Origin: Eubacteriales bacterium | Lineage (GTDB): Bacteria > Bacillota > Clostridia > Lachnospirales > Lachnospiraceae | Direction of reading: 5' to 3' | Assembly (NCBI GenBank): GCA_030539395.1 | Contig: JAUNSC010000019.1 | Span: 1 to 62,588, forward strand | DNA: 62,588 bases | Shown: piece by piece, positions 3,092-22,002 of the stretch | Numbering within the stretch: position 1 is the first letter of the stretch | Layout of the letters: each line of letters starts with the position of its first letter | Made by a program: the position numbers and the translations under genes | The notes under the pieces: generated by a model | Told to the model about the DNA's origin: nothing | The model's input: only the letters and a program-made list of their open reading frames with translations | Databases searched by the model: none

Positions 3092-3739
3092 TCATCTGTT
3101 GCTGCAGATGTAATCTCGTATACCTGCAATCATATACATCCCGGCACATGCCCCCTGATCACGTTCCCCATTGGCAGCCGCCTTATGAACTGCGGCTTTA
3201 CCATATTTGGGAATCATCCTTCTCGTAGCTTCAACCCCCTGTTCCGCCCCTCTTAAGGCGATGGACGCAACTTCTTCAAGGGATGCTTCGGGATGCTCTG
3301 CAAGATATTCTCTGCAGACATCAGACGCCGTACCGATTGCATCAAGTAAAGTCCGGTCTCCTCTTGTACATTTACCACGTTTTCTGACTCCCTCTTCAAA
3401 ACCGTTCAGGAAATCAGAAAAAGCAATCGCATCAATAGAATTTCTTCCCACAAGAGCTTTACCGCCTGTCATCAATCCGGAAGCCATCAAAGTTCCCATG
3501 GTGGAAGGAACGATTGAGCCCATTTTCATTCCGGATTTCATAATCAGTTTGCCAATGTCTGTTTCTTCAAGTTCACGTATAATCTGAGGAAGTGCGCCAA
3601 AACCTTTTTTCATGGTAAGTCCAAGATCTCCATCACCCATTCTGGCATCCATTTCACACAGTTCCTCTGCAACAATATTCATCTTTTTTGCAATTGCTTC
3701 AAACATCTCCGGGATATCAGCCAGGGAGATTTTGTCCAT
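3092..3739 (-). CDS. dhaL: DhaL-like kinase subunit (ATP-binding)
   Basis: Nucleotide-binding subunit of a dihydroxyacetone-kinase-type enzyme, 215 residues, matching DhaL. Seen: the Mg-ligand triad is D31, D36 and D38 in DARMGDGDLG, and the glycine-rich phosphate loop is MGSIVPSTMGTLMASGLM. It follows the DhaK-like gene by 19 bp and is the last gene of the operon. No DhaM (PEP-linked) gene is nearby, so direct use of ATP is inferred. The substrate may be a ketose or ketotetrose other than dihydroxyacetone, because the operon carries a sugar-type ABC importer. Confidence 0.85.
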   Translation of the reverse strand: MDKISLADIPEMFEAIAKKMNIVAEELCEMDARMGDGDLGLTMKKGFGALPQIIRELEETDIGKLIMKSGMKMGSIVPSTMGTLMASGLMTGGKALVGRNSIDAIAFSDFLNGFEEGVRKRGKCTRGDRTLLDAIGTASDVCREYLAEHPEASLEEVASIALRGAEQGVEATRRMIPKYGKAAVHKAAANGERDQGACAGMYMIAGIRDYICSNR

Positions 3740-3758
3740 AATTATCCTCCTTTGTTAA

Positions 3759-4742
3759 TTACCGGATGAATGGCGTATCCACCGGAAAATCAAGATACTC
3801 TTTTAATTCTGCGTCAAGCTTGCAAACAGTAATAGAGGCTCCCATCATCTCCATTGATGTTGCAAATTCACCAATTCTTGGATGATAGATCCGAATCCCC
3901 CTCTCATTTAACCATTTATACACACTGTTATACAAAATATACTGTTCATCCAAAGAAGTCGCCCCAAGACCATTAATCATAACGCAGACCTCATCGCCGG
4001 AAATTAGCGGCATATCTGCATTTATGCTTTCTAATGATTCTGCCGCAATCTCATCCGCCGTCTTAATTGCTCCATTCCAGATACCAGGCTCTCCATGAAT
4101 CCCCATTCCCATGGCCATTTCGTTTTCACCCAGCGTAAAATTAGGTTTTCCAACCTCCGGAATAATACAGGGGGTCAGTGCAAATCCAACCGTTCTGGTT
4201 GCTTCGGCCGCCTTCTTTGCTGCGGCATAAACCTGTTCCAAAGTACCCATTTTTGCTGCGCAGGCACCGGCAGCTTTATACAGGAAATAAATACCTGCCA
4301 CACCCCTGCGAACCTCAGGAGATCCGGAATTAACATCATCTGCACCTACAAGAGATAATGTTTTAATATCTTCCATTTCGCAAAGTTCCGCCGCCATATC
4401 GAAATTCATAATATCTCCTGTATAATTACCATACAGATAAAGAATTCCTGCGCCAGACTCCACTTCTTTACTGACAGTATAAATCTGCTCGGCAGATGGT
4501 GACTGAAATACACTCCCCACTGCACAGCCATCGAGAAGCCCTTTGCCAACGTATCCCAAAAATAACGGCAAATGTCCTGTTCCACCTCCTGTAATAATTG
4601 CAACTTTATTCGGTATTTTTTCATTTATACAATAGCAGCGCAGATCTCCATTTGCAAAATGTACACTCTCACCATGCGCTTTATAAATTCCAAGCAGCAT
4701 GTCATCCGTATATTCTTCTGGTTTATTGATTATTTTTTTCAT
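3759..4742 (-). CDS. dhaK: DhaK-like kinase subunit (substrate-binding)
   Basis: Substrate-binding subunit of the DhaK family, 327 residues. Seen: GGGTGHLPLFLGYVGKG near residue 52, the conserved GNYTGDIMNFDMA near 105, and His216 in MGMGIHGEPG. The last aligns with the His that binds the carbonyl of dihydroxyacetone covalently as a hemiaminal in known DhaK proteins. Together with the DhaL-like protein it should phosphorylate a small ketose. It sits between a TIGR04076 gene and dhaL in one operon. The exact substrate cannot be read from the sequence. Confidence 0.87.
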   Translation of the reverse strand: MKKIINKPEEYTDDMLLGIYKAHGESVHFANGDLRCYCINEKIPNKVAIITGGGTGHLPLFLGYVGKGLLDGCAVGSVFQSPSAEQIYTVSKEVESGAGILYLYGNYTGDIMNFDMAAELCEMEDIKTLSLVGADDVNSGSPEVRRGVAGIYFLYKAAGACAAKMGTLEQVYAAAKKAAEATRTVGFALTPCIIPEVGKPNFTLGENEMAMGMGIHGEPGIWNGAIKTADEIAAESLESINADMPLISGDEVCVMINGLGATSLDEQYILYNSVYKWLNERGIRIYHPRIGEFATSMEMMGASITVCKLDAELKEYLDFPVDTPFIR

Positions 4743-4786
4743 ACTTAAATCAATCCTTTTATTTAGACTTTGTATGCAGTTTCCAA

Positions 4787-5101
4787 TCAGTCAATTCTCT
4801 CAATCTTGAAAATAACCGGTCTTGTTCCGTCCGTGCAGCAGGAAATCATGATTTTTTCATCTTTTATCCATGAAAAATTTGCACCTGCGCAAATGCCCTC
4901 AATATCACGATTGAGATCTCCCCATGCCCATGGACAAAAACCTTCCGGCATTGGCCCTCCATTTTCATAATCAAACACCTGACCCACCTGAAAAGCATCG
5001 CAAGTCGGATCTGTGCCCTCCGGTGCCGGATTCGTCATATATTCTTTTTGAATCTCAACGTTCGCCATTTTTTTAATAACAGTAATTCTACACTTTCCCA
5101 T
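4787..5101 (-). CDS. TIGR04076-family small protein
   Basis: A 104-residue soluble protein of an uncharacterised family. Recognisable features are the N-terminal KCRITVIKK, a central CDAFQVGQVF, the motif MPEGFCPWAWGDLNRDI, and a C-terminal DGTRPVIFKIERID. Cysteines occur at about residues 4, 34, 57, 71, 88 and 89; whether they bind metal is unknown. It lies between the permease and kinase genes of the operon, 19 bp after the permease. Paralogues of this family often occur beside redox or sugar catabolic genes, but no reaction is established, so no function is assigned. Confidence 0.75.
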   Translation of the reverse strand: MGKCRITVIKKMANVEIQKEYMTNPAPEGTDPTCDAFQVGQVFDYENGGPMPEGFCPWAWGDLNRDIEGICAGANFSWIKDEKIMISCCTDGTRPVIFKIERID

Positions 5102-5120
5102 AAGACAACTCTCCTTTTAT

Positions 5121-6125
5121 TCAGATATTATTGATAATTTCCTTTTGTTTTTGTTTACTTACTTTTTTTGAGTGATAAATAAGTACCTGATTCATCGAAA
5201 CGGACAGAATCAGGATAATGCCCAGCACTGCCAGCTGCCAGATACCATTGAGGTTTGCATACTGGATGCCTGTGGAAATAATTGTTGTAATCAGGACTGC
5301 AATTATAACACCTGACAATTTCCCCGCGCCGCCATTGATGTCGATGCCTCCAAGCACCGCTACCGCTATGGTCTGTAAATCGTAACCGGAACCGGCATCC
5401 GCTCTTGCTGTCATAAGCCAGGAACACATAACAATAGAGGCAACAGAAGCTAAAAATCCATCTAAAATATAATTAATGCAGCGAATTTTTTTCACATCAA
5501 TTCCAGCAAATATTGCTGCATTTGCATTCGATCCGGTTAAATAAATATGCCTTCCATATTTAGTATGATTTACAGCGTACAATGTTATGATGAGTATGGG
5601 CGCAGCTACAAACAGAACCTGGTTCGGGATCAGAAATGTCGTTTTCTGTCCCAGCCATGCAAATGACTTTTCAAAACCACTGATTGGAACGCCGCCAGTG
5701 ATATAAAGCGATAATGAGCTATACATGTAACTGGTACTAAGCGTTGCAATAAATGCCGGAAGATTCAAAACAGACACAAGAAATCCATTGAAGAAGCCCA
5801 ATAGCATGCCAAATGCAATCACAAGCATGGCTGCGAAAAGAGGATTCATCCCTGTCTGAACGCACAGGATACCAAACAAAATACCAGACAGACTGGCAAT
5901 TGTACCAATTGAAAGATCAATTCCTCCGCCGCCGGATACCATAACAATTGATTGTCCAATGCCAAGCAGCAGAATAACCGCACCAAATTGTGTTACACCA
6001 AGCAGGTTCGTCACACTTACGAAACCGGGAGCAAGAAAATTAATTACAATCAGCGAAGCTGCCAGAAGCAAAAGAAGCAGAACCGTACGATTTGTCAGCA
6101 GTTTGATTATACCGTCTTTTTTCAA
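5121..6125 (-). CDS. RbsC-type ABC transporter permease (A)
   Basis: Inner-membrane channel subunit of a ribose-type (CUT2) sugar importer, 334 residues with about nine hydrophobic segments. Family signatures are GGGGIDLSIGTIASLSG and the cytoplasmic GGIDINGGAGKLSG loop that contacts the ATPase. The start is TTG at 6125, with GGAGG nine bases upstream and only a few bases after the stop of the preceding permease gene. With the second permease it probably forms a heterodimeric pore, since the single ATPase gene encodes both nucleotide-binding domains. Confidence 0.88.
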   Translation of the reverse strand: MKKDGIIKLLTNRTVLLLLLLAASLIVINFLAPGFVSVTNLLGVTQFGAVILLLGIGQSIVMVSGGGGIDLSIGTIASLSGILFGILCVQTGMNPLFAAMLVIAFGMLLGFFNGFLVSVLNLPAFIATLSTSYMYSSLSLYITGGVPISGFEKSFAWLGQKTTFLIPNQVLFVAAPILIITLYAVNHTKYGRHIYLTGSNANAAIFAGIDVKKIRCINYILDGFLASVASIVMCSWLMTARADAGSGYDLQTIAVAVLGGIDINGGAGKLSGVIIAVLITTIISTGIQYANLNGIWQLAVLGIILILSVSMNQVLIYHSKKVSKQKQKEIINNI

Positions 6126-6138
6126 TTTCCCTCACCTC

Positions 6139-7122
6139 CTACCGTATTGCTGCGGCTTTCTTTTTGTTAATGTGTGCTTTTTGTTTAAATACAATAACAT
6201 CCGCACAAAGAGACAGAATAATCAGCAGACCGGTTACAAAATATTCCAGTAAAGAAGGTATTCCCAAAATCACGATGCCGTTGCGTAAAAATGAAATAAA
6301 AAATACCCCTGCTAACGTTCCGAGAAGAGTAGATTTTCCGCCAACTCCTCCCATTCCCATGCCGCCAACCACAACGGCTGCAATGCAGTCAGTATGTAAC
6401 CTTACCCCCACCTGCATCTCCACCGCTCCCATTCTTGCTATATATAAAGATCCCGAAACCCCTGCCAATGCGCCAATCAGAAGATAGGAACACATTTTAA
6501 TAAAATCCGGGTTGATTCCACAAAGAGCCGCAGATTTACTGCTGGTTCCAACTGCCGCAATCTTTCTTCCGAAAGATGTATAATTTGTAACCCAGTAAAA
6601 GCAAATATAGAATAAAATAACCAGAAATATAATCACAGGAACCCCAAATACTTTTCCGGTTGTAATTCGTCCATACTTTGGTATAAGTCCTGTAAGCCAC
6701 TGTCCGCCAAGCAAACCAAAAATTGCTGCCCGATAAATATTCATTGTTGCAAGAGTTGCAACCATATCCGGAATTTTAAGTTTGACAATCAGAAATCCAT
6801 TTATTGATCCGAGCAAGGCACCAACTGCCACCGCAATACCAATAACAAGAAAAGAATTTCCGCTTATTTGCAGCATATGACCGGCAGCTAATGCCGACAG
6901 TCCCATAATCGCACCAACAGACAGATCAATTCCTCCAAGCATGATTACTATATTCATGCCGATACAGACAATGGACAACTCTGCAGCATTTGAGATTACC
7001 TGAGAGATATTAATATTGGAAAAAATATTTTTGTTGATGCTGCCCATAATGGCCACTTCAATCAAAATAAGCAGCAATGTCACATACTCTCGCGCTCTCG
7101 GTTTCGGAGCATATTTTTTCAT
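6139..7122 (-). CDS. RbsC-type ABC transporter permease (B)
   Basis: Second permease of the same importer, 327 residues with about nine membrane spans. Seen: MLGGIDLSVGAIMGLSALAAG early in the chain and GGMGMGGVGGKSTLLG near the C-terminus are the conserved RbsC-family loops. Its ATG overlaps the stop of the M20 gene by 4 bp (ATGA), and the SD GGAGAG lies 7 nt upstream, so translation is coupled. Two different permeases in one CUT2 operon resemble the LsrC/LsrD and RhaP/RhaQ arrangements. Confidence 0.88.
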   Translation of the reverse strand: MKKYAPKPRAREYVTLLLILIEVAIMGSINKNIFSNINISQVISNAAELSIVCIGMNIVIMLGGIDLSVGAIMGLSALAAGHMLQISGNSFLVIGIAVAVGALLGSINGFLIVKLKIPDMVATLATMNIYRAAIFGLLGGQWLTGLIPKYGRITTGKVFGVPVIIFLVILFYICFYWVTNYTSFGRKIAAVGTSSKSAALCGINPDFIKMCSYLLIGALAGVSGSLYIARMGAVEMQVGVRLHTDCIAAVVVGGMGMGGVGGKSTLLGTLAGVFFISFLRNGIVILGIPSLLEYFVTGLLIILSLCADVIVFKQKAHINKKKAAAIR

Positions 7123-8450
7123 TGTTCATCTCTCCTTATTCCACACCAGTCAACAATTGTAGACGCCATTACTTTAATAGAAGTAAAGTAATCTTCTACC
7201 GGCAAACCCTCATCACTTCTGTGAGATACCTCAGGTCTTCCCGGACCGTAATTAATAACCGGAATACCACTGTTTGTAGGCCATCCCATATCCGTATGGA
7301 AACCAAGGCCGCCAACCTCACCAGTAAAGCCTGCTTCTGCAGCCGCATTTGACATACATTTTACAAATTCATGGTCTGCACTGGTTTCAGCGCAGTCAGC
7401 ATCCATCAGCCATTCAACACCAGGAACATGGTCTTTAAGCCAGGGATCGGTCATTGCTACGTTATTAATCAAATCCAAAATCTCCTGTTTTACCTTTCCT
7501 CCCAGTAAATTCTCGTCACGATCACAGGGTCTGTACTGTGCGTTAAAAATAATCTCTGCCTTATTTGCAAATGATGTCGGAAATTCTCCTGCATTGAATT
7601 GTGCAACAAAAATCTGACATGGATTTGGAAGCAGCGGATGCGTTCTCGTAATCCTCCAGTCATCATTCAATCTTCTAAACGCATCGATATACAGCATGGC
7701 TTTGTCAATGGCATCCACTGCGCCCCCGGTTCGGAAATCGCCCTGATACATTTCAATGTGACCAGATCTGCCCTCAACCGTCAGTTTTCCCCAAAGGATA
7801 CCTCTGCACATTGGCGCCATAAGCAGGTTGGTCGGTTCTGTCATAATTGCAGCATCGGCACGATAGCCCTTGTCCATTACAGACATAATCCCCATACCGC
7901 CAGCTTCTTCATCGCAGAAAGTGCTGACAAGAACATCTCCATTTATTTTATATCCCAGACGATTGAGCACCTCAACCGCACTGATCATGGCTGCAATTCC
8001 GCCTTTCTGATCAACTGATCCGCGGCCATACATAATCCCATCTTCAACGGATGCATCAAATGCTTTTTTTGTCCATCCGCTCCCTTCAATTACAGTATCA
8101 ATATGACCGAGCAACATAAGAGACTTGCCTTTCGTCGGATCTGTTCCCTTCAATACACCGCACAGTGACGGACGGTCTCTATAGTCTCTTTCCGGATGAT
8201 ATCCCGCTCTGTTTTTATATTTAGACAGCGCATTTACATCTGGTTCCCACATATCAACCGAAAAACCAAGTTCAGATAATTTCTTATAAACAACCTTCTG
8301 GCAGTTTTTCTCATGATATTCTTCTGATTTTTTTTCATCATCATTGACCGCAAAAAAGTTATTTACACTGGGGGTATCAATAATCTCTTTTAAGAAAACC
8401 AGCAGTTCTTCTCTATGTTCATCGACCCAGCAATTAATTTCATTTTTCAT
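7119..8450 (-). CDS. M20-family metallopeptidase / amidohydrolase (ArgE/DapE-like)
   Basis: A Zn-dependent hydrolase of amide bonds, 443 residues, cytoplasmic. Seen: the M20 metal and catalytic set is complete, with H116 and D118 (LLGHIDTV), D147 (GSVDQKGG), E181/E182 (CDEEAGG), E205 (MTEPT) and a C-terminal His in VSHRSDEG. A dimerisation insert lies between roughly 215 and 340. It overlaps its neighbours by 4 bp on both sides, inside the importer operon. Such a gene between ABC components suggests that the imported compound carries an N-acyl or peptide bond which is cleaved before the kinase acts (inference). A general dipeptidase is the alternative. Confidence 0.87.
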   Translation of the reverse strand: MKNEINCWVDEHREELLVFLKEIIDTPSVNNFFAVNDDEKKSEEYHEKNCQKVVYKKLSELGFSVDMWEPDVNALSKYKNRAGYHPERDYRDRPSLCGVLKGTDPTKGKSLMLLGHIDTVIEGSGWTKKAFDASVEDGIMYGRGSVDQKGGIAAMISAVEVLNRLGYKINGDVLVSTFCDEEAGGMGIMSVMDKGYRADAAIMTEPTNLLMAPMCRGILWGKLTVEGRSGHIEMYQGDFRTGGAVDAIDKAMLYIDAFRRLNDDWRITRTHPLLPNPCQIFVAQFNAGEFPTSFANKAEIIFNAQYRPCDRDENLLGGKVKQEILDLINNVAMTDPWLKDHVPGVEWLMDADCAETSADHEFVKCMSNAAAEAGFTGEVGGLGFHTDMGWPTNSGIPVINYGPGRPEVSHRSDEGLPVEDYFTSIKVMASTIVDWCGIRRDEQ

Positions 8451-9970
8451 GGCATTGCCTCCTCCTGTACTAATCCTAATGCGGCGCTTAATACGCCCTG
8501 TTCTGTGATGTCCTTTCTGTCAAACTCTGAAACGATTTTTCCCCTGTACATTACGATTAACCGATCTGAAACTGACATAATTTCACTCATATCAGATGAA
8601 ATAACAATTACAGCCACACCCGATTTTGCCAGATCCATAATATATTCATGAATCTCCATCTTGGTAGCAATATCAATTCCACGTGTTGGTTCGTCAAGAA
8701 TCAATACCTTTGGGGTATCAATCAGCCATCTGCAGAATAAAACCTTCTGCTGATTTCCCCCGGAAAGTGACATAATTTCCGCGTCCTTACCACAAGTTTT
8801 GATTTTGTATTTTTTTATATTATCATCAATAGCTTTGTTCTCTTTTTTTCTGTTAATGCTTTGTAACCGGCCTTTGAACAAATCAAGGAAAGATACACTC
8901 ATATTTTCTCCGACGCTGTGTCCTGAAAACAGCCCCTGCACCCCGCGGTCTTCTGGCATATAGTACAGTTTCCTTGCAATAGCCTCGCCCGGAGAACGAT
9001 TTTCGATAACTGTCCCATCATATTTAATCGTTCCGGAATCTTTTTTTGTTTCCCCAAAAATGACTCTTGCCATTTCAGAGCGGCCTGATCCTACTAATCC
9101 ATAAAAACCAAGAACTTCTCCTTCTTTAAGGCTAAAACTGATGTCCTGAAACATTCTGTCTTTTGATAATTGTTCTACTTCCATGATTGTCTTTGAAGCT
9201 GAAAGATCACGCTGGCGATAAACATTCATATCAATACTTCTTCCGGACATTGCCTCAACGATTTTAGACTCGTTTGTATTTTGTGGTTTAATATCCGAAG
9301 CGGTGACTACGCCATCGCGGAGTATCATAATCCGATCGGATAACCGTAAAACTTCCTGAATTCGGTGGCTGATATAAATGACGCTTACACCGCTGCCTGT
9401 CAGACGCTCAATAATCTTATAGAGTTTTTCAGATTCTCCATGGCTTAAAATCGATGTCGGCTCATCAAGAATCAGGATTTTGCATTGCCTTTGAAGGCAC
9501 CTGGCAATCATAACAAGTTGCTGTGTTCCTATCGTTAATGTTTCCATCTTCTGCGTAGCAATCTCAATCGGAACGTCTACAGCCCTTAATGCTTTGCAAG
9601 TCTCCTCGTACATTTTCTTCCAGGAGAGGCTTGCCCCATTCCTGATCTCGTTTCCGATAAAAATATTTTCTATTACGGACAGATCACTGAAAATGTTCGG
9701 CTCCTGATAAATAATCGATATACCCTTCCTGAGTGCATCCAGAGTGGACTGAAATTCAATGTTTTCTCCCTCCAGCATAATCGTACCGGAATCGGGTCTT
9801 TCAGCTCCGGCTATTATTTTCATGAGTGTGGATTTACCAGCTCCATTTTCTCCAACAACGGAAAGTACTTCTCCTTTATAAAGATTCAGGCTGACATTAT
9901 TCAAAGCGGTATTTCCGCCAAATATTTTATAAATATGATTCAAGGCCAGAATTTCTTTTCTGCTTTCCAT
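8447..9970 (-). CDS. Ribose-type ABC transporter ATPase (two ATP-binding domains)
   Basis: Energy-coupling subunit of the importer, 507 residues, the usual size of RbsA/MglA proteins. Seen: domain 1 has Walker A GENGAGKSTLMKI and Walker B ILILDEPTS. Its signature reads LTIGTQQLVMIARCLQ, a variant of LSxGQQ. Domain 2 has the degenerate loop GLVGSGRSEMARVIFG typical of the family, then LSGGNQQKVLFCRWL and VLILDEPTRGID. It overlaps the M20 gene by 4 bp. It lies 104 bp after the binding-protein gene, with a stem-loop between. Confidence 0.93.
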   Translation of the reverse strand: MESRKEILALNHIYKIFGGNTALNNVSLNLYKGEVLSVVGENGAGKSTLMKIIAGAERPDSGTIMLEGENIEFQSTLDALRKGISIIYQEPNIFSDLSVIENIFIGNEIRNGASLSWKKMYEETCKALRAVDVPIEIATQKMETLTIGTQQLVMIARCLQRQCKILILDEPTSILSHGESEKLYKIIERLTGSGVSVIYISHRIQEVLRLSDRIMILRDGVVTASDIKPQNTNESKIVEAMSGRSIDMNVYRQRDLSASKTIMEVEQLSKDRMFQDISFSLKEGEVLGFYGLVGSGRSEMARVIFGETKKDSGTIKYDGTVIENRSPGEAIARKLYYMPEDRGVQGLFSGHSVGENMSVSFLDLFKGRLQSINRKKENKAIDDNIKKYKIKTCGKDAEIMSLSGGNQQKVLFCRWLIDTPKVLILDEPTRGIDIATKMEIHEYIMDLAKSGVAVIVISSDMSEIMSVSDRLIVMYRGKIVSEFDRKDITEQGVLSAALGLVQEEAMP

Positions 9971-10014
9971 ATCAATTTACCCCATCTATTTGTACATATT
10001 TAAGTGTATATACT

Positions 10015-10048
10015 GGTTGACGGGGCAAACTACATTACCCCATCAACC
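10015..10048 (-). promoter_or_regulatory. Intercistronic stem-loop after the binding-protein gene
   Basis: GGTTGACGGGG (10015-10025) pairs with CCCCATCAACC (10038-10048) through an 11-bp stem with one G-U pair and a 12-nt loop. No T-run follows. It lies 27 nt past the binding-protein stop. Such hairpins commonly stabilise the upstream part of the mRNA so that the binding protein is made in excess (inference). Confidence 0.6.
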
Positions 10049-10074
10049 ACTTGTCCGGATGAGTTTGACACGGT

Positions 10075-11097
10075 TTAGAAATCAAAATCATCTACATTGT
10101 CTGCATCAATAACGAGCGGATCACCAAGCAAGAGAGTCCGTTCATCTTCAATCCACTGGATTGTGTTGTCAATTGCATCCAATTTGAATTCTGCTTCAAA
10201 GGATCCCTCTGTTATCCAGTGATGCGCAGCCCACACTGTTAAATACCCAAGGTCTACCGCATTCCAGAGAACAGAGCATTTCATAACTCCGGCTTCAATA
10301 TAAGGCCTTACAACATTAGGACTCGCTACACCGATAACAGAAATCTCACCGGCCTTTCCCGCCTGCTGAACCGCCTGGGCAAGACCAGGAACAACACTGG
10401 TGGCAACTCCTACAACGCCTCTAAGTTCCGGAAATTTAATCATCATTTCCTGTGTTTGTTTTAAAGCATCTTCCGTACTGCCATCTGTCGTATAGCGAAC
10501 ATCCACAATCTCTATATTTGGATATTTTTCGTCTACACGTTCTTTCATGGCATCAATCCAGGCATTCAGGTTACTTGCAGTAGATTCTCCTGAAACAAAC
10601 CCAATTTGCGCCTCTTCGCCGGTCTGCTTAACTAATTCATCAATTAGAGTTCTTCCCATGTCATCAGACATGGCCTGACATACAAAAAATTCTCTGTTGG
10701 AATTTGGTGCGTCAGAATCTGAAGTATAAGCAAGAATTCCTGCTTCTTTTGCCTGATCAATATAAGGATTAATGGACTCGGTATCCAGAACGGATATTGA
10801 AACTGCGTCTACCCCCTGCCTGATCAGACTGTCCATAATCTTAACCTGCTCCACTGCATTCGCCGTCGGTGAACCAACATTCAAATACTCGACCCCCAAA
10901 TCTTCAGCGGCGGCATTTCCTCCAATTTCCATAGCCGTGAAATACGGAATACCTATCAGCTGCGGAATAAATGCAATTTTCATTTTTTCGGTCCCGTTTT
11001 CAGTTTCCGGGGTCCCTTCTGCATACACAGCTGAACTGCCGGCAAGCATACTTACACTCAATACTGCGGATACTAAAATCGCTAAATTTCTTTTCAT
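10075..11097 (-). CDS. Periplasmic-binding-protein-type sugar-binding protein
   Basis: Extracytoplasmic solute receptor of the importer (Peripla_BP_4/RbsB superfamily), 340 residues. Seen: a signal peptide (MKRNLAILVSAVLSVSMLAGSSAVYAE) with no lipobox cysteine, and then the sugar-binding fold with MKIAFIPQLIGIPYFTAMEIGG. Its closest feel is the AI-2/rhamnose-binding branch (LsrB/RhaS) rather than RbsB, judging from the chain IPYFTAMEIG...EDLGVEYLNVGS. The start ATG 11097 follows GGGAGG; an in-frame ATG five codons upstream overlaps that ribosome site. First gene of the operon. Confidence 0.88.
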   Translation of the reverse strand: MKRNLAILVSAVLSVSMLAGSSAVYAEGTPETENGTEKMKIAFIPQLIGIPYFTAMEIGGNAAAEDLGVEYLNVGSPTANAVEQVKIMDSLIRQGVDAVSISVLDTESINPYIDQAKEAGILAYTSDSDAPNSNREFFVCQAMSDDMGRTLIDELVKQTGEEAQIGFVSGESTASNLNAWIDAMKERVDEKYPNIEIVDVRYTTDGSTEDALKQTQEMMIKFPELRGVVGVATSVVPGLAQAVQQAGKAGEISVIGVASPNVVRPYIEAGVMKCSVLWNAVDLGYLTVWAAHHWITEGSFEAEFKLDAIDNTIQWIEDERTLLLGDPLVIDADNVDDFDF

Positions 11098-11129
11098 TGC
11101 TTTCCCTCCCATTATTTTTTAGTAATCAG

Positions 11130-11139
11130 ACAAATTTGT
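11130..11139. promoter_or_regulatory. Operator-like palindrome ACAAATTTGT, distal copy
   Basis: A perfect 10-bp palindrome flanked as AGACAAATTTGTTTA, about 65 bp into the predicted transcript. It matches the copy at 11190 in the opposite orientation of its flanks. Probable second operator of the divergent LacI-type regulator (inference). Confidence 0.6.
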
Positions 11140-11189
11140 TTATTAAATATTTTTTCGGTATATTAGTGTTTCTTTGAAAAAAATAATAT

Positions 11190-11199
11190 ACAAATTTGT
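11190..11199. promoter_or_regulatory. Operator-like palindrome ACAAATTTGT, promoter-proximal copy
   Basis: The same 10-mer with flank AAGACAAATTTGTATA on the minus strand. It lies at about +5 to +14 relative to the predicted start of transcription, a classic repression site. It is 60 bp from the distal copy, which would put both sites close to the same face of the helix. Confidence 0.65.
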
Positions 11200-11210
11200 C
11201 TTACAATATA

Positions 11211-11336: not shown

Positions 11337-11410
11337 AATAAATATTATAAATGAAATATAACTGATTACTAAAAATTATTATAAAATTTATGATAATGGG
11401 AGGAGTGCCT

Positions 11411-12427
11411 ATGACAATCAGAGAGATTGCGGACTTACTGGATGTTTCTCCGTCAACAGTCTCAATTGTATTGAACGGAAAGCCGGGTGTGAGCGACAAA
11501 ACCAGATGCAGGGTGCTTGATGCACTGAAAAAATATGGATACGGAACAGAACGGGTCCGCCGTTCTAACAATAGCGGAAAAAACATTTATTTCCTCAAAT
11601 ATTCAACTACAGGTTTACTTGTTGATAAAAACGATGGATTTGTAAGCGAAATCATTGATGCTACTGAAGTTGAAGTTCGGAAGAATGGATATAACCTTGT
11701 TCTGACTTCAATTAATGACCAGAATCTGGAAAATTCATTACGCCATATCAAGGCCTCTCAAACTGCCGGATTAATTTTGCTCGGAACTGAACTGTTTAAA
11801 AAATCGTCATTTTTTCTTACAAACCTGGATATACCACTTGTTATCATTGATAATTATATGCCGTCCTATAATATCAATTGTGTAGTAATGAATAACAAAG
11901 AAATCGTAAAACAGTCAGTGCAATATCTTTATGATCTCGGCCATAGAAGTATCGGTCATGTGGGAAGCAGTGTACATATAACTAATTTTGAAGAGCGCGA
12001 TGCTGCATTTCACGAAAAAATGCAGGAACTTTCACTAAAATTTAATCCTAAACACGAATACTACGTTGTTCCGAATATCACGTTAGCATATGAAGAATTC
12101 AAAAACATATTAAAAAATACACCATCGCTTCCCACAGCATTGTTTTGTAACAACGACTCTATCGCAATTGGTGTTATCCGCGCATTAAAGGAGTATGGAT
12201 ATCATATACCTCATGATATTTCAATTATCGGTCTTGATGACATTCCATCTGCTTCATTAATTGATCCTCCTCTTACAACTACGAAGATTTACAGAATTGA
12301 TATAGGAAAATGGTCCATACAGTTACTTATGGATGCCATTCACAATCCACATCCAACTCCGGCAAAAGTGCTGACATCCGGAAAATTTAAAATTCGAGAC
12401 AGCGTTGCTCCTCCAAGTCAAAAATAA
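11411..12427 (+). CDS. LacI-family transcriptional regulator
   Basis: A repressor of 338 residues. Seen: the N-terminal LacI helix-turn-helix (TIREIADLLDVSPSTVSIVLNG, residues 2-23), hinge region near 45-60, then a sugar-binding-fold effector domain with LILLGTELFKK and a C-terminal DDIPSASLIDPPLTT, typical of the family. ATG 11411 is chosen because GGAGG lies 7 nt upstream; the frame opens seven codons earlier. It is divergent from the importer operon, whose promoter region holds twin palindromes, so local control by the imported sugar or its phosphate is inferred. Confidence 0.9.
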   Translation: MTIREIADLLDVSPSTVSIVLNGKPGVSDKTRCRVLDALKKYGYGTERVRRSNNSGKNIYFLKYSTTGLLVDKNDGFVSEIIDATEVEVRKNGYNLVLTSINDQNLENSLRHIKASQTAGLILLGTELFKKSSFFLTNLDIPLVIIDNYMPSYNINCVVMNNKEIVKQSVQYLYDLGHRSIGHVGSSVHITNFEERDAAFHEKMQELSLKFNPKHEYYVVPNITLAYEEFKNILKNTPSLPTALFCNNDSIAIGVIRALKEYGYHIPHDISIIGLDDIPSASLIDPPLTTTKIYRIDIGKWSIQLLMDAIHNPHPTPAKVLTSGKFKIRDSVAPPSQK

Positions 12428-12522: not shown

Positions 12523-13704
12523 TTAAATCCTGACTCGTTCCTGCTTCTGCTGCGCTGCAGCTGCCAGCTGTCCCATCAAAATCCCGCACTCCGCTTCCAG
12601 CCTGAAATCCATCAGATTTTCCATCTGTATCAGATTCGGATCGGAATGTTCCAGTTCCCGGCAGTATCGCCATGCCAGGCGCAGCCGTTCATCAAATGAT
12701 ATATGAAAACACTGTTCCGTCCATACAGCAAACACGGTTTCTTCCCATATAAGAGTACTTACTACCGCCATCTTTACTTTTGACAGGGCATCACCGTCAT
12801 ATACCGCTCCGCAAAAATATGTAAACAGATAATATACCATCATCTGCTCATATTCCTCCTGCGGGATCACTGCCTGCTGCCGGAATGCCCGTTTCCATTT
12901 GTTATAAGTTTCCGGGCAGGACAGGTACAGCATAGATCTCCACTTCACTCTGTCACTGTACCAGTCTTCATCCAGGACTTCCCATTCACCCGGCAATTCC
13001 ATTTGAGCCTTACATATTTCCATTTCAGACAACACGGATTTTTCGCCATGTGCCAGTACTTTTTCCCGGCATTTTTTCAAAGCCGACGGATTTTTCGATC
13101 GCTCTAAAAGTGCTTCCACATCAAACAGCTTTCCTGCGTCAATACGGCTCTGCACATCATGAGCAAGGGCAAGCGTCTGCGCCATCCTGACAAAAACGTC
13201 TTCTTCCCGGTTCTGCATGATTTCTATCAGAACCGTTCTCGTATCCTGAAGGGCTGAATAGAGGAAATCATCAAATTCTTCCAGTTCTTCCTCTTTTTCG
13301 TCTTCCGCCGTAACAAAACGGACCTTTTCCTTTTCTCCCAAAATCAGCCGCGCAGCTTCCGGGCAGGACATGGAAAGGGATATCTCCCGCTCATTTTCAA
13401 ATTCTTCAATGTGCCGGGGATACTTCCGGCAGGTGGCACAGAGCATTTCCGGTCCGGCTTCCGTATAAATATCACACAGATTTTTTTCATTCAAAAAAGC
13501 ACACCGGCCGCTATATTGTTCAAAAGCCTCTTCTTTCCAGTTAATGGAGTTTTTCAGGCGGTTGCCGAACGTTCCCCGATATGCCTTATATTTCTTCTGT
13601 GATTTTCTGTCGATAACAATCTGCCAGCCTGCGCAGCAGGTTGCCGGGCAGGCCGAAGCAGTACAACGAAATTTTTTATAAAAATGCGGTACAGTGTAAA
13701 GCAT
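12523..13704 (-). CDS. Flagellin lysine-N-methylase-like Cys-rich protein (FliB family)
   Basis: 393 residues. Seen: an N-terminal cluster CTASACPATCCAGWQ (residues 14-28), then CAFLNEKNLCDIY and MLCATCRKYPRH near 85-120, and a SMSCPEAARLIL segment. This Cys arrangement is that of FliB/YkgJ-type proteins. Salmonella FliB methylates flagellin lysines and needs an iron-sulfur cluster. The rest is helical without recognised motifs. No flagellar gene is in the window, so the protein substrate is unknown. It is followed 12 bp upstream by xpt on the same strand, a probably accidental pairing. Confidence 0.8.
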   Translation of the reverse strand: MLYTVPHFYKKFRCTASACPATCCAGWQIVIDRKSQKKYKAYRGTFGNRLKNSINWKEEAFEQYSGRCAFLNEKNLCDIYTEAGPEMLCATCRKYPRHIEEFENEREISLSMSCPEAARLILGEKEKVRFVTAEDEKEEELEEFDDFLYSALQDTRTVLIEIMQNREEDVFVRMAQTLALAHDVQSRIDAGKLFDVEALLERSKNPSALKKCREKVLAHGEKSVLSEMEICKAQMELPGEWEVLDEDWYSDRVKWRSMLYLSCPETYNKWKRAFRQQAVIPQEEYEQMMVYYLFTYFCGAVYDGDALSKVKMAVVSTLIWEETVFAVWTEQCFHISFDERLRLAWRYCRELEHSDPNLIQMENLMDFRLEAECGILMGQLAAAAQQKQERVRI

Positions 13705-16933: not shown

Positions 16934-19561
16934 TTATCGTTTAATTACAATTCTATGTCTGCCTGCACAAAGTTTAAACAAAATATAGTCCTCTGCTTCT
17001 TCTGAATCAGCTTTTATTGAACTCTGTATTTCTGAAACTGTACCATATTTCTTAAGTATTCTGGCTTCCGTTTCTACATTTTGCGGAATATCCACTGTAA
17101 TAATCAGCTCCTCTTCTTTCTTTTCCCATTCAGACTTAATCTGTCCGGACAGAATTTCCATACTTACGCTCACCTGATTCAATCCGCCCGGAATAAGCGG
17201 GCAAAGCGTTAATTTCTGTGTTCCTGATGCATCACAACTGAGATTGATTCCCCCCAGATACTTATAGAACCAAACGCATGCCTGTGCAAACATTGGATGA
17301 TTTCTGGAATTCATGATATTATTATCATGATCTGCTTCCCATCTTTCCCATATAGTTGTGGCACCATTAACAATCATGTAACCAAAGCTGGGAGATGTTG
17401 TCTTTGTCATGATTTTAAACACAACATCTTCATACCCATTTTCACATAAGGTCTGGATGACGGCTTTCGTCCCCACCGATCCTGTTGTTAGATGATAATC
17501 ATGATCTTCCAGATTTCTCACAATGTTTTTTACAATAGCCGGTATAAATTCTTTTTCAGCCAGTCCCATCATAACTGCCATTGCATTTGCGCTCTGTGTT
17601 CCCTGGTCATACTGTGCCGTTTCACGGTCAAAATACTTTTCATTTATTTTGTTTCTGACTGTCTCTGCCAATGAGCCAAGATACGATATTTCTTTCCTTT
17701 CCAAAATCTTTGCCATTTCCTGCATCTGAAGCAAAGTAAAATAAAAATATGTAGTAGACACAAATGGAAAGGAAACAAACTTTGGAGTCGCTCCCGGTCC
17801 ATGCTCTTCAGGAAAACACTCCGCTTTAGGGCATGCCCATTCTCCGTACGGAGATCTTGAAATCATCAAATTTTCTGATTCTCTTAACAGGCGATTCATG
17901 TATTCCAGGACTTCATCATAATGCTGTTCCATCTCACGACGGTTCCCATACATTCTGTAAAGCAGAAGTAACATTCCTACCGGGATATTCGCCTGTGGAT
18001 CATTCGGCCTTCCACCCCACCGGTAAGGCGCGGTATCGGCAAAGTATCCCTCTTCATTTCTGGTATCATACAAATCTCTTATCCATTTCATAAAAAAGCC
18101 CGCAACATCAAACGTATAAACTGCTCCTTCGGCATTTGATGTAGGATCTGTTGCCCAGCCATGACGTTCATCTCTCTGTGCACAGTCTGTCGGTATCCCC
18201 ATAAAATTGCAGGCATCGGTCTGGCGCATAGCGTCTGCAATTTTATTCAGAATTTCATTGTCACACGAAAATGTTGTACTATCACGTAAATTCATGTGCA
18301 CAAATTTTGCCCTGAGCCCTTTTATCTTTACATTTCCTTCTGTTTTTACCGTAAAATACTGAAATCCATGATAAGTAAACCGCGGTTCAAACTGTTCTCC
18401 ATCAGGTCTGCCTCTTAAGATATAGTAATCCTCACACCTTGCGGAACGTAGAGGTGTCTTTTCAAGTTTTCCCTCCTCATTCAGCACTTCAGCAAAGGAT
18501 AACCCCACTTTTGCTCCAGCGTCACCGACCACATCAATTTCCACCCAGCCAGTAATATTTTTTCCAACATCATATAGAACTGTCCCATCATCAAACGTGC
18601 TGACCTGCCTGGGTTCATAGACAGCACATACCTGAATAGGAGCCATGATTTCTGATATACGCTCTCCTCCCGGATCCTCCACGATTGTTGCCATGATCCA
18701 TCCCTTTGGGCGCTGATGTTCTAATATTGCTGTCGGCTCATACTCCGGAGTATCCCATCCATCCTTTTCCATACGGGCATCATAGTCTTCACCATCATAC
18801 AATGCATTATAAGTAATTGGTCCCCGGGCAACACACCATGATGTCCCATATTCAGTATAAACTTCCTGCCGTTCTCCGTCCGCATAATCAATATTTATCT
18901 GCAGCAAAATTTTCGGCAAACCTGCAAACCCGGTTCCCAGCATAAAACCAAGGGCGTTGCCTCCTTTACAAATATCAGAAGTGATATCATACGCTGTATA
19001 CAAGACGGTCTTACTGTAATCTGTAGGTGCAGGATCCAGTTTCTTTTCTCCGATAATACGCCCATTCAGGTGGAATTCATAATATCCGACACAACAGACA
19101 TATGCTCTGGCCCTGATTATTTCCTTCTCCTTTGTTTCAAAATAGTGCCGCATTAAAAGCCCGTTGCCTACCATTCCCCCAACAAAACTCAGCCAGACGC
19201 CTTTCCACTCTTTTTTATCAAAAAGCCCTGTTTCGAACCACGAACATTCGGAAAAATCGCTTTCTTTCCCATCACTATCCCAGATTTTTACTGCCCAGTA
19301 TACTCTCTCCTCACTGTGCAAAGTTCTTCCATTATAAGGAATTCCATAAGATTTTGATGTTTCAACTTTTCCAGTATCCAATAAATCAAAGACGTGATTC
19401 TCTAAACGTTCTTGTGAAGAGGATGCAACAATTTTATATGCTTTCTGCATGACCGGATGATCCGCAGAAATCTGCCAGCTAAGCAGCGGATGCGCATTTT
19501 GAACTCCAAGGGGTGTGACTTCATATTCGCATTTCAAATTAATAGCTTTTAATTCACTCAT
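16934..19561 (-). CDS. Alpha-L-rhamnosidase, GH78
   Basis: Hydrolyses terminal alpha-L-rhamnose from glycosides by inversion. 875 residues without a signal peptide, so it acts inside the cell on imported rhamnosides. Seen: N-terminal beta domains (SELKAINLKCEYEVTPLG; YEFHLNGRIIGEKKLDPAPTDYSKTVLY near 161-188), then the (alpha/alpha)6 catalytic domain with DCAQRDERHGWATD (459-472), which carries the conserved acidic residues D459, D464, E465 and D472. Later comes TTIWERWEAD, which holds the predicted general base Glu. The C-terminal beta-sandwich closes the protein. AAGGAG lies before ATG 19561. Linked to importer genes in one operon. Confidence 0.93.
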   Translation of the reverse strand: MSELKAINLKCEYEVTPLGVQNAHPLLSWQISADHPVMQKAYKIVASSSQERLENHVFDLLDTGKVETSKSYGIPYNGRTLHSEERVYWAVKIWDSDGKESDFSECSWFETGLFDKKEWKGVWLSFVGGMVGNGLLMRHYFETKEKEIIRARAYVCCVGYYEFHLNGRIIGEKKLDPAPTDYSKTVLYTAYDITSDICKGGNALGFMLGTGFAGLPKILLQINIDYADGERQEVYTEYGTSWCVARGPITYNALYDGEDYDARMEKDGWDTPEYEPTAILEHQRPKGWIMATIVEDPGGERISEIMAPIQVCAVYEPRQVSTFDDGTVLYDVGKNITGWVEIDVVGDAGAKVGLSFAEVLNEEGKLEKTPLRSARCEDYYILRGRPDGEQFEPRFTYHGFQYFTVKTEGNVKIKGLRAKFVHMNLRDSTTFSCDNEILNKIADAMRQTDACNFMGIPTDCAQRDERHGWATDPTSNAEGAVYTFDVAGFFMKWIRDLYDTRNEEGYFADTAPYRWGGRPNDPQANIPVGMLLLLYRMYGNRREMEQHYDEVLEYMNRLLRESENLMISRSPYGEWACPKAECFPEEHGPGATPKFVSFPFVSTTYFYFTLLQMQEMAKILERKEISYLGSLAETVRNKINEKYFDRETAQYDQGTQSANAMAVMMGLAEKEFIPAIVKNIVRNLEDHDYHLTTGSVGTKAVIQTLCENGYEDVVFKIMTKTTSPSFGYMIVNGATTIWERWEADHDNNIMNSRNHPMFAQACVWFYKYLGGINLSCDASGTQKLTLCPLIPGGLNQVSVSMEILSGQIKSEWEKKEEELIITVDIPQNVETEARILKKYGTVSEIQSSIKADSEEAEDYILFKLCAGRHRIVIKR

Positions 19562-19599
19562 GAATTCTCCTTTCTATAATGGTTTTCGTCATGCCATGT

Positions 19600-22002
19600 T
19601 TACTGGAGGATTTTTTGACTTCTATGTGCAATTTTTGATACCGTTACATCAATGCCCTCCTCATTTAAAACTATACCGCTGGAGCGTCCTGCAAATGTGC
19701 CATTAACATATATAGAATACTGTGCCATTTTATTTGCCCCTTCTACAGATATATGAAGTGTATTACGCATTCCTTCTGCTATTTCAGCATCAATAAATAT
19801 CTCATTTCCCTCATTTCTGAAATCAGATATTGTAGATGCATTCACTCCAATGGCATGTTTGTACTCCAGATTTATATAAATATCGCCCAAAATGGGGCAC
19901 ATAATTTCCGCAGACACCTGGGCAGTTCCAATTCCCCAGTTAACACCAGATATATAATTCATTCCATTTTCGCCGCAGTGGGCAAAATTCTCATAAGGAT
20001 AGGTAGCAAAACCTGCACGGAGTGCTGCCACACCGCGTTCCAGATATTCCACATTACCTGTTAACCGATAATACTCCATAAAAATAACTGCCATATAATC
20101 CTGACGATGGTCGCACCATTCGCCATCTGTATTTTGCGTTGTGTATCCTCCTAATGTTGGCCGTTTCCTGATCAACGGATGATTCCATACAGCCTGAGTT
20201 AAAGCCGTATAATCCGTTATCATTGCTCCGTTTTCAAGCCAAAATTCTTTTTCTGTCACCTGGTACAGTACCAAAAATGCCTGACATGCAAAAATCTGCG
20301 CCATATTGCACTGTGGAAATTGCGCTGTATAAGCATCATAATAATCAAAGGGTTTAGGTGAACACGATAAGAACGCCTCGAGATCATACCATCTATTTCT
20401 TGGAATCACCTTTTCCAGAATAAAACAGGCAACTTTCTCCGCACAATTCAGATATTTTTCATTTCCATGTCTTTTATACATCTCTGCCAAAAACAAAGCA
20501 CATGCTGAACACTCTGCATTAAAATCCTTAAATTCTTTTCGCTCTGCCTCCAGGTTACTGTTATACCAGGCAGGAATACAACCATCCTCATTCTGGTTTC
20601 TGACAAAGAATTCCGCCAGTTCATTACACATCACAAAAATATCTTCTCTGGCCTGCGGACAAATATCTTCCCACTGCAGCAGCCAATATCCTGTCCATCC
20701 CATATTCACTGCATGATACTCATCTTTGTAACCAGCCCATGTGTCATCGCGATACCAGTTTACCGAACCATCCTCTCCCAAACCCAGAATTGCCGGGAAT
20801 GCACCGCCATTTCTGGGAGCTGCCAACACGGCATTTAAAATTCCTTTTGCTCTTTCTGTTACCTCCGTATCATTTATACGAAGGCCGAAGCGCGCCCAGC
20901 CATAAGCCGTTCGAAGAGATTGTGCCCAGATTTGATACCATCCATCCTTTTCACTGGCATCCGGGATTGTATCCATTGTCCTGCGGCTTGTCAGTAATCC
21001 ACAAGAGCGGCCATTATATTCAAACGCTGTATAATCCCTATCACAGGTATCATACCAGGTGAGATCAGCCCAATCTTCGAAATCAATAATTGAAGCATCC
21101 AGTGGATTCCGCTGATTATCGACAGACTGCAACAGTTGTTTATGCCCTATGCTTTCCCACAAATATTTTACACCCCTGCGATATCCCTGACGAAACGGTT
21201 CTTCAGAAAGCAGCAGGTCATATGAAAATGTGACACATCCTTTGCGCTCACAGGAAACAGGATCACAAGAACGCGGATAATAAGAGTGCCCTTCCGCATG
21301 TACCTCACTATGCTTATCCAATCCGCCTGAAATAATACCGCAGGAAAACCATGCTTTTGATTCTTCCGGTACTCCAAGGTCCATTCCCAGGGGGGTTTCC
21401 CTGAGTATATTATGATCTGTTTTTGAGAGATCCGGAACAATCGCTGCAAATACATTTCCCTGCTGGAACATAATGACAGGGGATTTAAAGCACCAATGTG
21501 GAATATAGTTACTCTCTTCCCGCTTGATTTGCTGGCTCCATATAAAATCCAACGGGCCCGAGATCCCATCAATGTTTTTTCTTGTTTCAGGAGCAAAAAA
21601 CAATTTGTCCTCAATTGATATAATATTATCATAACGTGAAGGAACAAACGAAACCTTGACATGTGCCAGATTTTTAACATCATCCAGTCTGACTTCTCTG
21701 ATTACTTTACCCAGCGGGCCTATCCCATAGGTTTTAATCGTACTGATTCCCCGTCGGACATGTGATTCTATTTTTTCCAGGTCAAACTTACATTCTTCCT
21801 GGCTCAGGTTGAGATTTTTCAATGCTTCCCATCCGTGTGATTCTCCTCCTTCAGCAACCGGTACAGGACTGGCTACAGTAGGAAAGCCAATCGTATTAAT
21901 TGCGTCAATCCATTTTCCCTCACAAAGAATCTGGTATTTTTCTTCAAGTCCGCCATTTATTCTTTCAGCAGAATATCTAATTTTTCCAGTCTGTAATTCC
22001 AT
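19600..22002 (-). CDS. Unclassified large protein, probable (alpha/alpha)6-barrel glycan-active enzyme
   Basis: 800 residues, no signal peptide; I do not recognise a named family. Seen: the first 270 or so residues look like a beta-rich domain. From about 320 the chain has repeated amphipathic helices in the six-hairpin glycosidase style, for example GWARFGLRINDTEVTERAKGI, then CNELAEFFVRNQNEDGCIPAW, SACALFLAEMYKRHGNEKYL and DYTALTQAVWNHP. Trp, Tyr, Asp and Glu are frequent in the loops. A short C-terminal beta segment follows. ATG 22002 is preceded by GGAGG at 5 nt. It sits between a VOC gene and GH78, so a role on the same rhamnoside is inferred; hydrolase or lyase cannot be told apart. Confidence 0.7.
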   Translation of the reverse strand: MELQTGKIRYSAERINGGLEEKYQILCEGKWIDAINTIGFPTVASPVPVAEGGESHGWEALKNLNLSQEECKFDLEKIESHVRRGISTIKTYGIGPLGKVIREVRLDDVKNLAHVKVSFVPSRYDNIISIEDKLFFAPETRKNIDGISGPLDFIWSQQIKREESNYIPHWCFKSPVIMFQQGNVFAAIVPDLSKTDHNILRETPLGMDLGVPEESKAWFSCGIISGGLDKHSEVHAEGHSYYPRSCDPVSCERKGCVTFSYDLLLSEEPFRQGYRRGVKYLWESIGHKQLLQSVDNQRNPLDASIIDFEDWADLTWYDTCDRDYTAFEYNGRSCGLLTSRRTMDTIPDASEKDGWYQIWAQSLRTAYGWARFGLRINDTEVTERAKGILNAVLAAPRNGGAFPAILGLGEDGSVNWYRDDTWAGYKDEYHAVNMGWTGYWLLQWEDICPQAREDIFVMCNELAEFFVRNQNEDGCIPAWYNSNLEAERKEFKDFNAECSACALFLAEMYKRHGNEKYLNCAEKVACFILEKVIPRNRWYDLEAFLSCSPKPFDYYDAYTAQFPQCNMAQIFACQAFLVLYQVTEKEFWLENGAMITDYTALTQAVWNHPLIRKRPTLGGYTTQNTDGEWCDHRQDYMAVIFMEYYRLTGNVEYLERGVAALRAGFATYPYENFAHCGENGMNYISGVNWGIGTAQVSAEIMCPILGDIYINLEYKHAIGVNASTISDFRNEGNEIFIDAEIAEGMRNTLHISVEGANKMAQYSIYVNGTFAGRSSGIVLNEEGIDVTVSKIAHRSQKILQ

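What the first reader, a model, noticed from the sequence alone, without database searches (positions are those of the whole stretch)
3092..11097. An importer operon joining an M20 amidohydrolase, a TIGR04076 protein and a DhaKL-type kinase
Eight genes with short gaps or 4-bp overlaps encode a CUT2 importer with two different permeases, an intact M20 hydrolase, an uncharacterised TIGR04076 protein and both kinase subunits (His216 and D31/D36/D38 present, no DhaM). Sequence shows the linkage; the family roles are known. I infer a path in which an N-acylated or peptide-linked ketose is imported, the amide is cut and the ketose is phosphorylated. I know of no described pathway with this exact set.
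Basis: partly seen in the sequence, partly recalled or inferred. Interest (0 to 1): 0.78.

Follow-up and report, generated by a model that had tools for sequence, protein, structure and literature searches.

The report
Sugar importer operon with built-in amidohydrolase
A bacterium carries one switchable gene set that probably imports a small sugar-like compound held by an amide bond, cuts that bond and phosphorylates the sugar half; the importer-plus-cutter part recurs in distant bacteria, while the phosphorylating part is an add-on seen in only one other lineage so far.

Summary
In detail: eight co-directional genes (window 11097 down to 3092) encode a CUT2 binding protein, ATPase, M20 hydrolase, two distinct permeases, a TIGR04076 protein and DhaK/DhaL, beside a divergent LacI gene; two palindromes at the promoter have no other exact copy in the held genome. 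Comparison splits the set. (1) Importer plus M20 is an old module: all 10 examined operons with a window-like binding protein carry M20, in Bacillota, Chloroflexota, Planctomycetota and Pseudomonadota; the 9 aligned share a pocket signature unlike AI-2 or rhamnose receptors. (2) The downstream enzymes vary (GATase1_like, PfkB/ribokinase, cupin, BtpA/TenA). DhaKL occurs in the window and one Anaerolineaceae MAG, in the same slot, apparently recruited separately. (3) TIGR04076 is in this operon only. DhaK lacks E. coli's Lys104 and belongs to a clade usually near CUT2 importers (10 of 12 loci), so it is probably an ATP-dependent ketose kinase. New variant of a known kind, moderate interest; ten literature searches, judged from listings, showed no description.

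The parts
11390..12427 (+). LacI-family regulator, divergent from the operon
   Evidence: Pfam LacI + Peripla_BP_3; best NCBIfam models RbsR/CytR/PurR, all far below cut-off
11188..11201 (-). operator-like palindrome 1, AGACAAATTTGTAT, just downstream of a TTGACA-15-GATAAT promoter-like stretch at 11239-11213
   Evidence: only two exact AGACAAATTTGTWT sites in the held genome, both here; with one mismatch allowed 6 sites against 5 in the control. Promoter read, not tested
11128..11141 (+). operator-like palindrome 2, AGACAAATTTGTTT, 60 bp from the first
10075..11097 (-). CUT2 substrate-binding protein, LsrB/RhaS-like fold, pocket signature Q51, D132, D134, N181-L182 (numbered from ATG 11112)
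9971..10074 (-). SBP-ATPase gap with a strong 15-pair hairpin, no T-run; probably protects or attenuates the message so that SBP exceeds the rest
   Evidence: fold -36.1 kcal/mol, z -3.9, 0 of 200 shuffles as good; role inferred
8447..9970 (-). CUT2 ATPase, two ABC domains
7119..8450 (-). M20 amidohydrolase, ArgE/DapE-like, di-metal residues intact
6139..7122 (-). CUT2 permease A
   Evidence: matched separately from permease B in relatives
5121..6125 (-). CUT2 permease B (TTG start)
4787..5101 (-). TIGR04076 protein, 104 aa, six Cys
   Evidence: 80 bits, cut-off 33; six Cys; second copy in the genome at C25
3759..4742 (-). DhaK, non-canonical clade (GHLPLF; Gly105 where E. coli has Lys104; His57, Asp110, His216 kept)
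3092..3739 (-). DhaL (D31, D36, D38 kept)

Best explanation
A LacI-controlled import-and-hydrolyse operon. SHOWN by sequence: a complete CUT2 importer whose binding protein has its own conserved pocket signature, an M20 hydrolase with all expected metal residues whose gene overlaps those of ATPase and permease A by 4 bp, and both DhaK and DhaL without DhaM. INFERRED: the importer brings in a small sugar-like compound carrying an amide or ureide bond; the M20 enzyme cuts that bond in the cytoplasm; in this lineage the sugar half, as or after conversion to a short ketose, is phosphorylated by an ATP-using DhaKL and enters central metabolism. Importer and M20 form the conserved core; DhaKL is a lineage-specific ending that takes the place held in relatives by GATase1_like, ribokinase/PfkB and cupin enzymes. 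TIGR04076 is a late addition of unknown role. Control acts through LacI at the two palindromes (inferred).
For: Importer+M20 core in 10 of 10 examined window-like SBP operons, with window-to-relative identities SBP 49-59%, ATPase 44-57%, M20 47-51%, PermA 38-49%, PermB 45-49% for L084/L085/L087/L088, and the order SBP-ATPase-M20-PermA-PermB in L084, L085, L087 and L088. Five of the ten were found independently with an SBP query on plasmids. More distant SBPs met by SBP query (166-220 bits) lack M20: 5 of 5 loci with both flanks held (L105-L107, L115, L117); L108 ends 195 bp after its SBP; so does an ordinary rhamnose operon lack it. Pocket Gln and Asn-Leu constant in 9 aligned SBPs across phyla, so probably one ligand class. 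In the genome-contig scan 29 of 29 M20 relatives sit by a CUT2 importer; 28 have GATase1_like, 24 a PF04115-type cupin, 21 PfkB; the one without GATase1_like, L087, has DhaKL. L062's kinase passes the ribokinase cut-off, 301.9 vs 299.65. DhaKL sits in the same slot in window and L087, but neither DhaK nor importer (AU p 5.3e-5 against a window+L087 clade) groups them, which suggests two recruitments. The window's DhaK clade lies near CUT2 ATPases in 10 of 12 close loci, with neighbours MtnK/MtnA, RbsD/FucU, transketolase halves, DeoC.
Against: DhaKL is in 2 of 11 importers only; from the DhaK side 0 of 20 loci have M20. DhaKL could simply have been joined to a CUT2 operon, as its clade often is, and act on dihydroxyacetone. 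L084-L086 and L088, among the closest importers, show no PfkB or DhaK (other kinase families were not looked for). M20 enzymes mostly act on N-acyl amino acids or peptides, not sugars (family knowledge). Paenibacillus couples a near M20 (53%) to a different SBP (130-140 bits, without the Gln/Leu signature), and L008/L009 pair it with a one-permease importer, so the M20 subfamily does not by itself fix the ligand, and M20 is not confined to window-like SBPs. The Pseudomonadota operons have a short, single-domain-sized ATPase (about 255 aa), unlike the window. L087 and L084 are MAGs. Both trees have long branches at the window and L087.
Confidence: 0.42

Rival explanations
1. Two functions in one transcript: the importer and M20 scavenge an N-acyl amino acid, dipeptide-like or ureide compound for its nitrogen or carbon, and DhaKL (with TIGR04076) was joined by operon shuffling and serves general dihydroxyacetone or ketose phosphorylation.
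For: DhaKL and TIGR04076 are not part of the conserved core; the closest importers end in GATase1_like and have a second M20; a search with this DhaK finds no other match in the genome, so a general role is possible; M20 structural neighbours are deacylases, peptidases and, lower down, carbamoyl and ureidoglycolate amidohydrolases.
Against: DhaKL landed in the same slot in two lineages; kinases of another family accompany the M20 importer in Paenibacillus and Rhizobium; the window DhaK lacks the Lys of canonical DHA kinases.
Confidence: 0.33
2. An autoinducer-2-type system: an LsrB-like receptor imports AI-2 or a close analogue and DhaKL replaces the LsrK kinase.
Against: LsrB equivalog score 155 against a cut-off of 384; Lys->Gln and Asp-Gln->Asn-Leu at the receptor positions in the alignment (that these contact AI-2 is recalled); no LsrK-, LsrF- or LsrG-like gene among the eight; an M20 hydrolase has no known place in AI-2 processing.
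Confidence: 0.1
3. An ordinary sugar (rhamnose or pentose) uptake operon, with the M20 enzyme trimming an unrelated small side product.
For: Best NCBIfam model for the SBP is RhaS, 205.7 bits; CUT2 importers normally carry monosaccharides; DhaK clade sits in pentose-like contexts; an alpha-L-rhamnosidase gene lies about 6 kb from the operon's start at 16934-19561.
Against: RhaS cut-off is 342 and the Lys and Gln of rhamnose receptors are Gln and Leu here; no isomerase, mutarotase or aldolase in the operon, in contrast to a real rhamnose operon; M20 is in every examined window-like operon and in none of the 5 fully held loci with more distant SBPs found by SBP query.
Confidence: 0.12

Closest known systems
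Lsr (LsrACDB-LsrK) AI-2 importer
   Different: pocket residues; no LsrK/LsrF/LsrG among the eight genes; M20 and DhaKL instead
Rhamnose importer RhaSTPQ with RhaK/RhaU
   Same: SBP family resemblance (TIGR02637 205.7 bits), two permeases
   Different: below the RhaS cut-off, no rhamnose enzymes, M20 present
ArgE/DapE family deacylases (TIGR01910)
   Same: fold, di-metal residues; R. etli orthologue passes the cut-off (238.5 vs 217.6)
   Different: window protein 212.2, just below; shared motifs C(R/H)GILWGK and DADC(A/G)E in 15 aligned relatives (uniqueness not tested); beside a CUT2 importer in 29 of 29 loci
E. coli / L. lactis DhaKLM
   Same: DhaK and DhaL subunits, active-site His and metal Asp kept
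   Different: no DhaM found in the genome; DhaK and DhaL both below equivalog cut-offs; Gly for Lys104; GHLPLF for GHEP
ATP-dependent DAK and tetrulose kinases (recalled: LerK/DerK of Mycobacterium)
   Same: DhaM-independent Dak1/Dak2 chemistry, in sugar operons
   Different: separate subunits; no sequence of a proven tetrulose kinase was compared here

Membership tests
CUT2 ABC importer | Peripla_BP_4 SBP, tandem-domain ATPase, BPD_transp_2 permease(s) | tested here: met
Lsr AI-2 system | SBP scores as LsrB (PRK15408, cut-off 384) | tested here: not met
   155.3 bits
Lsr AI-2 system | Lys / Asp-Gln ligand residues of LsrB (contacts recalled) | tested here: not met
   Gln51 and Asn181-Leu182 in the window and 8 orthologues; LsrB is reported plastic
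Lsr AI-2 system | LsrK-type kinase in the operon | tested here: not met
   none of the eight genes is an FGGY kinase; rest of the genome not searched
Rhamnose importer | SBP passes TIGR02637 (342.25) | tested here: not met
   205.7 bits
DhaKLM (PTS-dependent DHA kinase) | DhaM present | tested here: not met
   0 matches in G000 (93.94% complete), control rings in 3 of 14 genomes
DhaKLM (PTS-dependent DHA kinase) | DhaK / DhaL pass TIGR02363 (406.25) and TIGR02365 (138.3) | tested here: not met
   337.1 and 96.3 bits
Dak1/Dak2 kinases in the wide sense | His binding the carbonyl, three Asp for Mg-nucleotide (roles from family knowledge) | tested here: met
   His216; D31, D36, D38
ATP-dependent ketose kinase | phosphorylates a ketose with ATP | not testable with these tools
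   needs enzyme assay
M20 peptidase/deacylase | di-metal ligands, catalytic Glu, dimerisation domain | tested here: met
ArgE/DapE deacylase subfamily TIGR01910 | score over 217.6 | tested here: inconclusive
   212.2 in the window, 238.5 in the R. etli orthologue
TIGR04076 | score over 33 | tested here: met
   80 bits

The most novel reading that the evidence does not exclude
A previously undescribed class of import-and-hydrolyse CUT2 systems for one kind of amide- or ureide-linked sugar compound, spread over at least four phyla, in which importer plus M20 amidohydrolase is the fixed core and the sugar-processing end is swapped between lineages (GATase1_like, ribokinase, cupin, BtpA/TenA, and here a DhaKL ketose kinase of a new specificity).
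Probability: 0.35. Interest if true: 0.72.

Novelty: new variant of a known kind. Interest (0 to 1): 0.55.

Why it matters
If right, a common importer class has a sub-branch that takes up conjugates and cuts them inside the cell, and the ligand could be a nutrient or signal not yet known. The binding protein has orthologues with a constant pocket signature, so one ligand screen would inform many genomes at once, including ones now labelled 'autoinducer-2 binding protein'. It also marks a DhaK clade (Gly for Lys104) whose members are probably not plain dihydroxyacetone kinases, although they are likely to be annotated as such (inference).

Tried and rejected
Rejected: TIGR04076 as a conserved pathway partner. 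50 of 150 family genomes have a match; the 30 loci I examined hold no M20, DhaK, DhaL, CUT2, GATase1_like or PfkB gene within their roughly 1.5-kb flanks, and of the loci held only the window's own has it. Rejected: a shared regulon; the palindrome has no further exact site in the held genome. In the window alone the three-mismatch count is hardly above chance (18 against 11.8, 5 of 100 shuffles reach it). Rejected: M20 as a random insertion. Rejected: DhaKL inherited with the importer from an ancestor shared only with L087, (long branches are a caution; a first DhaK tree, left out the window's nearest relatives through my own filter and is not used).

Thin searches: SBP orthologue in 1 of 397 family genomes, 1 of 8 genus genomes, 1 of 47 in the genus of G719, each time only the starting genome; in the class of G718 5 of 199, one at 50% (G718 itself) and four at 37-39%. 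M20 at E<=1e-60 in 4 of 397 family genomes, own included, none beside DhaKL; at E<=1e-80 in 2 of 392 order genomes, own included. The SBP plasmid search lists 20 of 149 records; weaker ones were not inspected apart from three, and of the 9 Pantoea records 2 were opened. GATase1_like, PfkB and cupin counts are by phmmer against query proteins from L062, L085, L109 and L110 within 8 kb upstream or 6 kb downstream of M20; Pfam was run on one or a few of each. Whether the window's genome has GATase1_like elsewhere was not searched.

L087's extra 194-aa protein matches no Pfam or NCBIfam family. Ten literature searches showed no paper on this gene set, judged from titles and abstract openings; the one paper naming TIGR04076 (PMC8667426) was not opened. 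From PMC12503165 and PMC12268683 I read passages only. LsrB contact residues, E. coli DhaK residues as substrate contacts, and LerK/DerK are recalled.
Full report
What is there. On the minus strand, 11097 down to 3092, lie eight intact genes in one direction: binding protein, ATPase, M20 hydrolase, permease A, permease B, TIGR04076 protein, DhaK, DhaL. ATPase/M20 and M20/permease A overlap by 4 bp; other gaps are 13-44 bp except 104 bp after the binding protein, which holds a 15-pair hairpin (-36.1 kcal/mol, z -3.9). A divergent LacI gene starts at 11390. Between them are two copies of AGACAAATTTGT[A/T]T, 60 bp apart; in the held genome these are the only exact sites, and with one mismatch allowed there are 6 sites against 5 in the control. 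So this looks like a locally controlled operon.

The M20 enzyme belongs to the importer. A scan of genome contigs with the M20 protein gave 29 relatives at 48-53%; 29 of 29 lie beside a CUT2 importer. Five (L084 Planctomycetota, L085 Pelolinea, L086 and L088 Lachnospiraceae, L087 Anaerolineaceae) have the window's own order, [SBP-]ATPase-M20-PermA-PermB, four of them with two M20 genes (L086 is cut by its contig's start and shows no SBP). Because that search began from M20 I repeated it from the other side: the SBP against plasmid records listed 12 records with a full-length match of 42% or more (Pantoea 9, Rhizobium 2, Acidisoma 1), and an M20 query at E<=1e-80 found exactly the same 12. Five of these were opened and all show SBP, two permeases and the M20 gene, called 'ArgE/DapE family deacylase' where annotated; their annotated ATPase is short, about 255 aa. 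In all 10 examined operons whose SBP scores over 270 bits M20 is present, the window counted. Of 6 loci with SBPs at 166-220 bits, also found by SBP query, 5 lack it and the sixth (L108) ends just after its SBP; a rhamnose operon found by the same search has rhamnose genes instead. The exception to this tidy split is Paenibacillus, found through M20: SBP at 130-140 bits in the two scored, yet M20 at about 53%. Agrobacterium vitis L112 has the same genes interrupted.

The pocket. LsrB and RhaS receptors share a Lys near the start and a Gln after the Asp/Asn of the second lobe; the window has Gln and Leu there. The nine window-like SBPs in the alignment all keep Gln and Asn-Leu, while the two Paenibacillus-type and one rhamnose SBP do not. 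The predicted SBP structure (mean pLDDT 88.0, residues 1-39 poor) superposes best on AI-2 receptors, which shows fold only. I take the constant signature to mean one ligand class across phyla, different from AI-2 and rhamnose; AI-2 is not excluded, because LsrB-type receptors are reported to be tolerant (PMC12268683, passages).

What follows the core varies. Among the 29 M20 loci, 28 have a GATase1_like gene, 24 a PF04115-type cupin, 21 a PfkB kinase, 1 DhaKL, 0 TIGR04076 (PF07090 itself confirmed for L085, PF04115 for L062). The PfkB of L062 passes the ribokinase cut-off. R. etli has PfkB and a glutamine amidotransferase-like gene; Pantoea has PfkB, BtpA/SgcQ and a TenA-like protein (TenA 62.7 bits against 130). 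The one locus of 29 without GATase1_like is L087, and it has DhaK-DhaL after permease B and one small gene, the same slot as in the window. No GATase1_like gene is found in the window either; the rest of the genome was not searched for it.

DhaKL. Its 12 close relatives (68-73%) in 397 family genomes lie near CUT2 ATPases in 10 of 12 loci (L053 is cut at a contig edge), and 12 of 20 fetched loci overall, but with M20 or TIGR04076 in 0 of 20. Neighbours include MtnK and MtnA above their cut-offs, RbsD/FucU, split transketolase and DeoC, all pentose-type contexts. The window's DhaK falls in this clade (100/100) and L087's does not; the importer tree puts the window with L086/L088 (100/99) and rejects window+L087 (AU p 5.3e-5). 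DhaKL was therefore probably attached to this importer twice. With two cases this is suggestive only. DhaK keeps His57, Asp110 and His216 but has Gly105 where E. coli has Lys104, and GHLPLF for GHEP. Among the 30 relatives at 338 bits or more, Gly is there in all 25 in which my pattern could be read and GHLP in all 23; a Gly form also occurs further out (L095), and the Lys form in L098. No DhaM is found. I read this as an ATP-using kinase for a larger ketose; this is inference.

Mechanism proposed. Ligand relieves LacI; SBP and two-permease importer take it in; M20 cuts an amide or ureide bond; the sugar half becomes a ketose phosphate through DhaKL. Only the parts list and its conservation are shown. 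The route as a whole I hold at 0.42, against 0.33 for two unrelated functions in one transcript, 0.12 for an ordinary sugar operon and 0.10 for an AI-2-type system.

Against my reading: few cases of DhaKL, a single MAG for the second case, no PfkB or DhaK seen at the nearest relatives, no shown ligand, and M20 relatives that also serve other importers (L008, L009, Paenibacillus). Novelty: each family is known; the importer-M20 core with swappable endings was not seen in the ten literature searches, which cover open-licence papers only and were judged from listings.

Noticed in passing
L062-L083, L089, L090 (e.g. L062:2806-12102): Paenibacillus/Cohnella carry a conserved operon, mostly LacI - ribokinase/PfkB - CUT2 - PF04115 cupin - M20 - GATase1_like, with another SBP type; apparently a second import-and-hydrolyse system.
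   Followed up: partly
L110:1-14195 and L114: Pantoea plasmids hold two M20-linked importers side by side, one with a phosphotriesterase-related protein and a glutamine amidotransferase-like gene, the other with PfkB, BtpA/SgcQ and a TenA-like protein.
   Followed up: partly
L044:9279-13620; L046:1667-3815: A DhaKL gene pair beside a split transketolase with a CUT2 importer nearby (L044), and beside an RbsD/FucU gene (L046); looks like another ketose route.
   Followed up: no
L051:8202-16916, L052: DhaKL of the window's clade together with MTR kinase, MtnA, PfkB and a CUT2 importer: possible methylthioribose or 5-deoxyribose uptake and salvage.
   Followed up: no
L109:7158-8336: Rhizobium PfkB kinase with an N-terminal LacI-type DNA-binding stretch (first 60 or so residues match LacI regulators, then ribokinase-like).
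   Followed up: no
window 16934-26026: Alpha-L-rhamnosidase, an 805-aa protein without a Pfam match, a glyoxalase-like protein and a second CUT2 importer (ATPase, permease, SBP) on the same strand.
   Followed up: no
window 43239-44129: A PfkB/ribokinase-like gene elsewhere in the window (142 bits to L062's ribokinase).
   Followed up: no
window 12523-13704: 393-aa Cys-rich protein without a Pfam match, next to a phosphoribosyltransferase.
   Followed up: no
window 9971-10074: Strong hairpin without T-run between the SBP and ATPase genes.
   Followed up: partly
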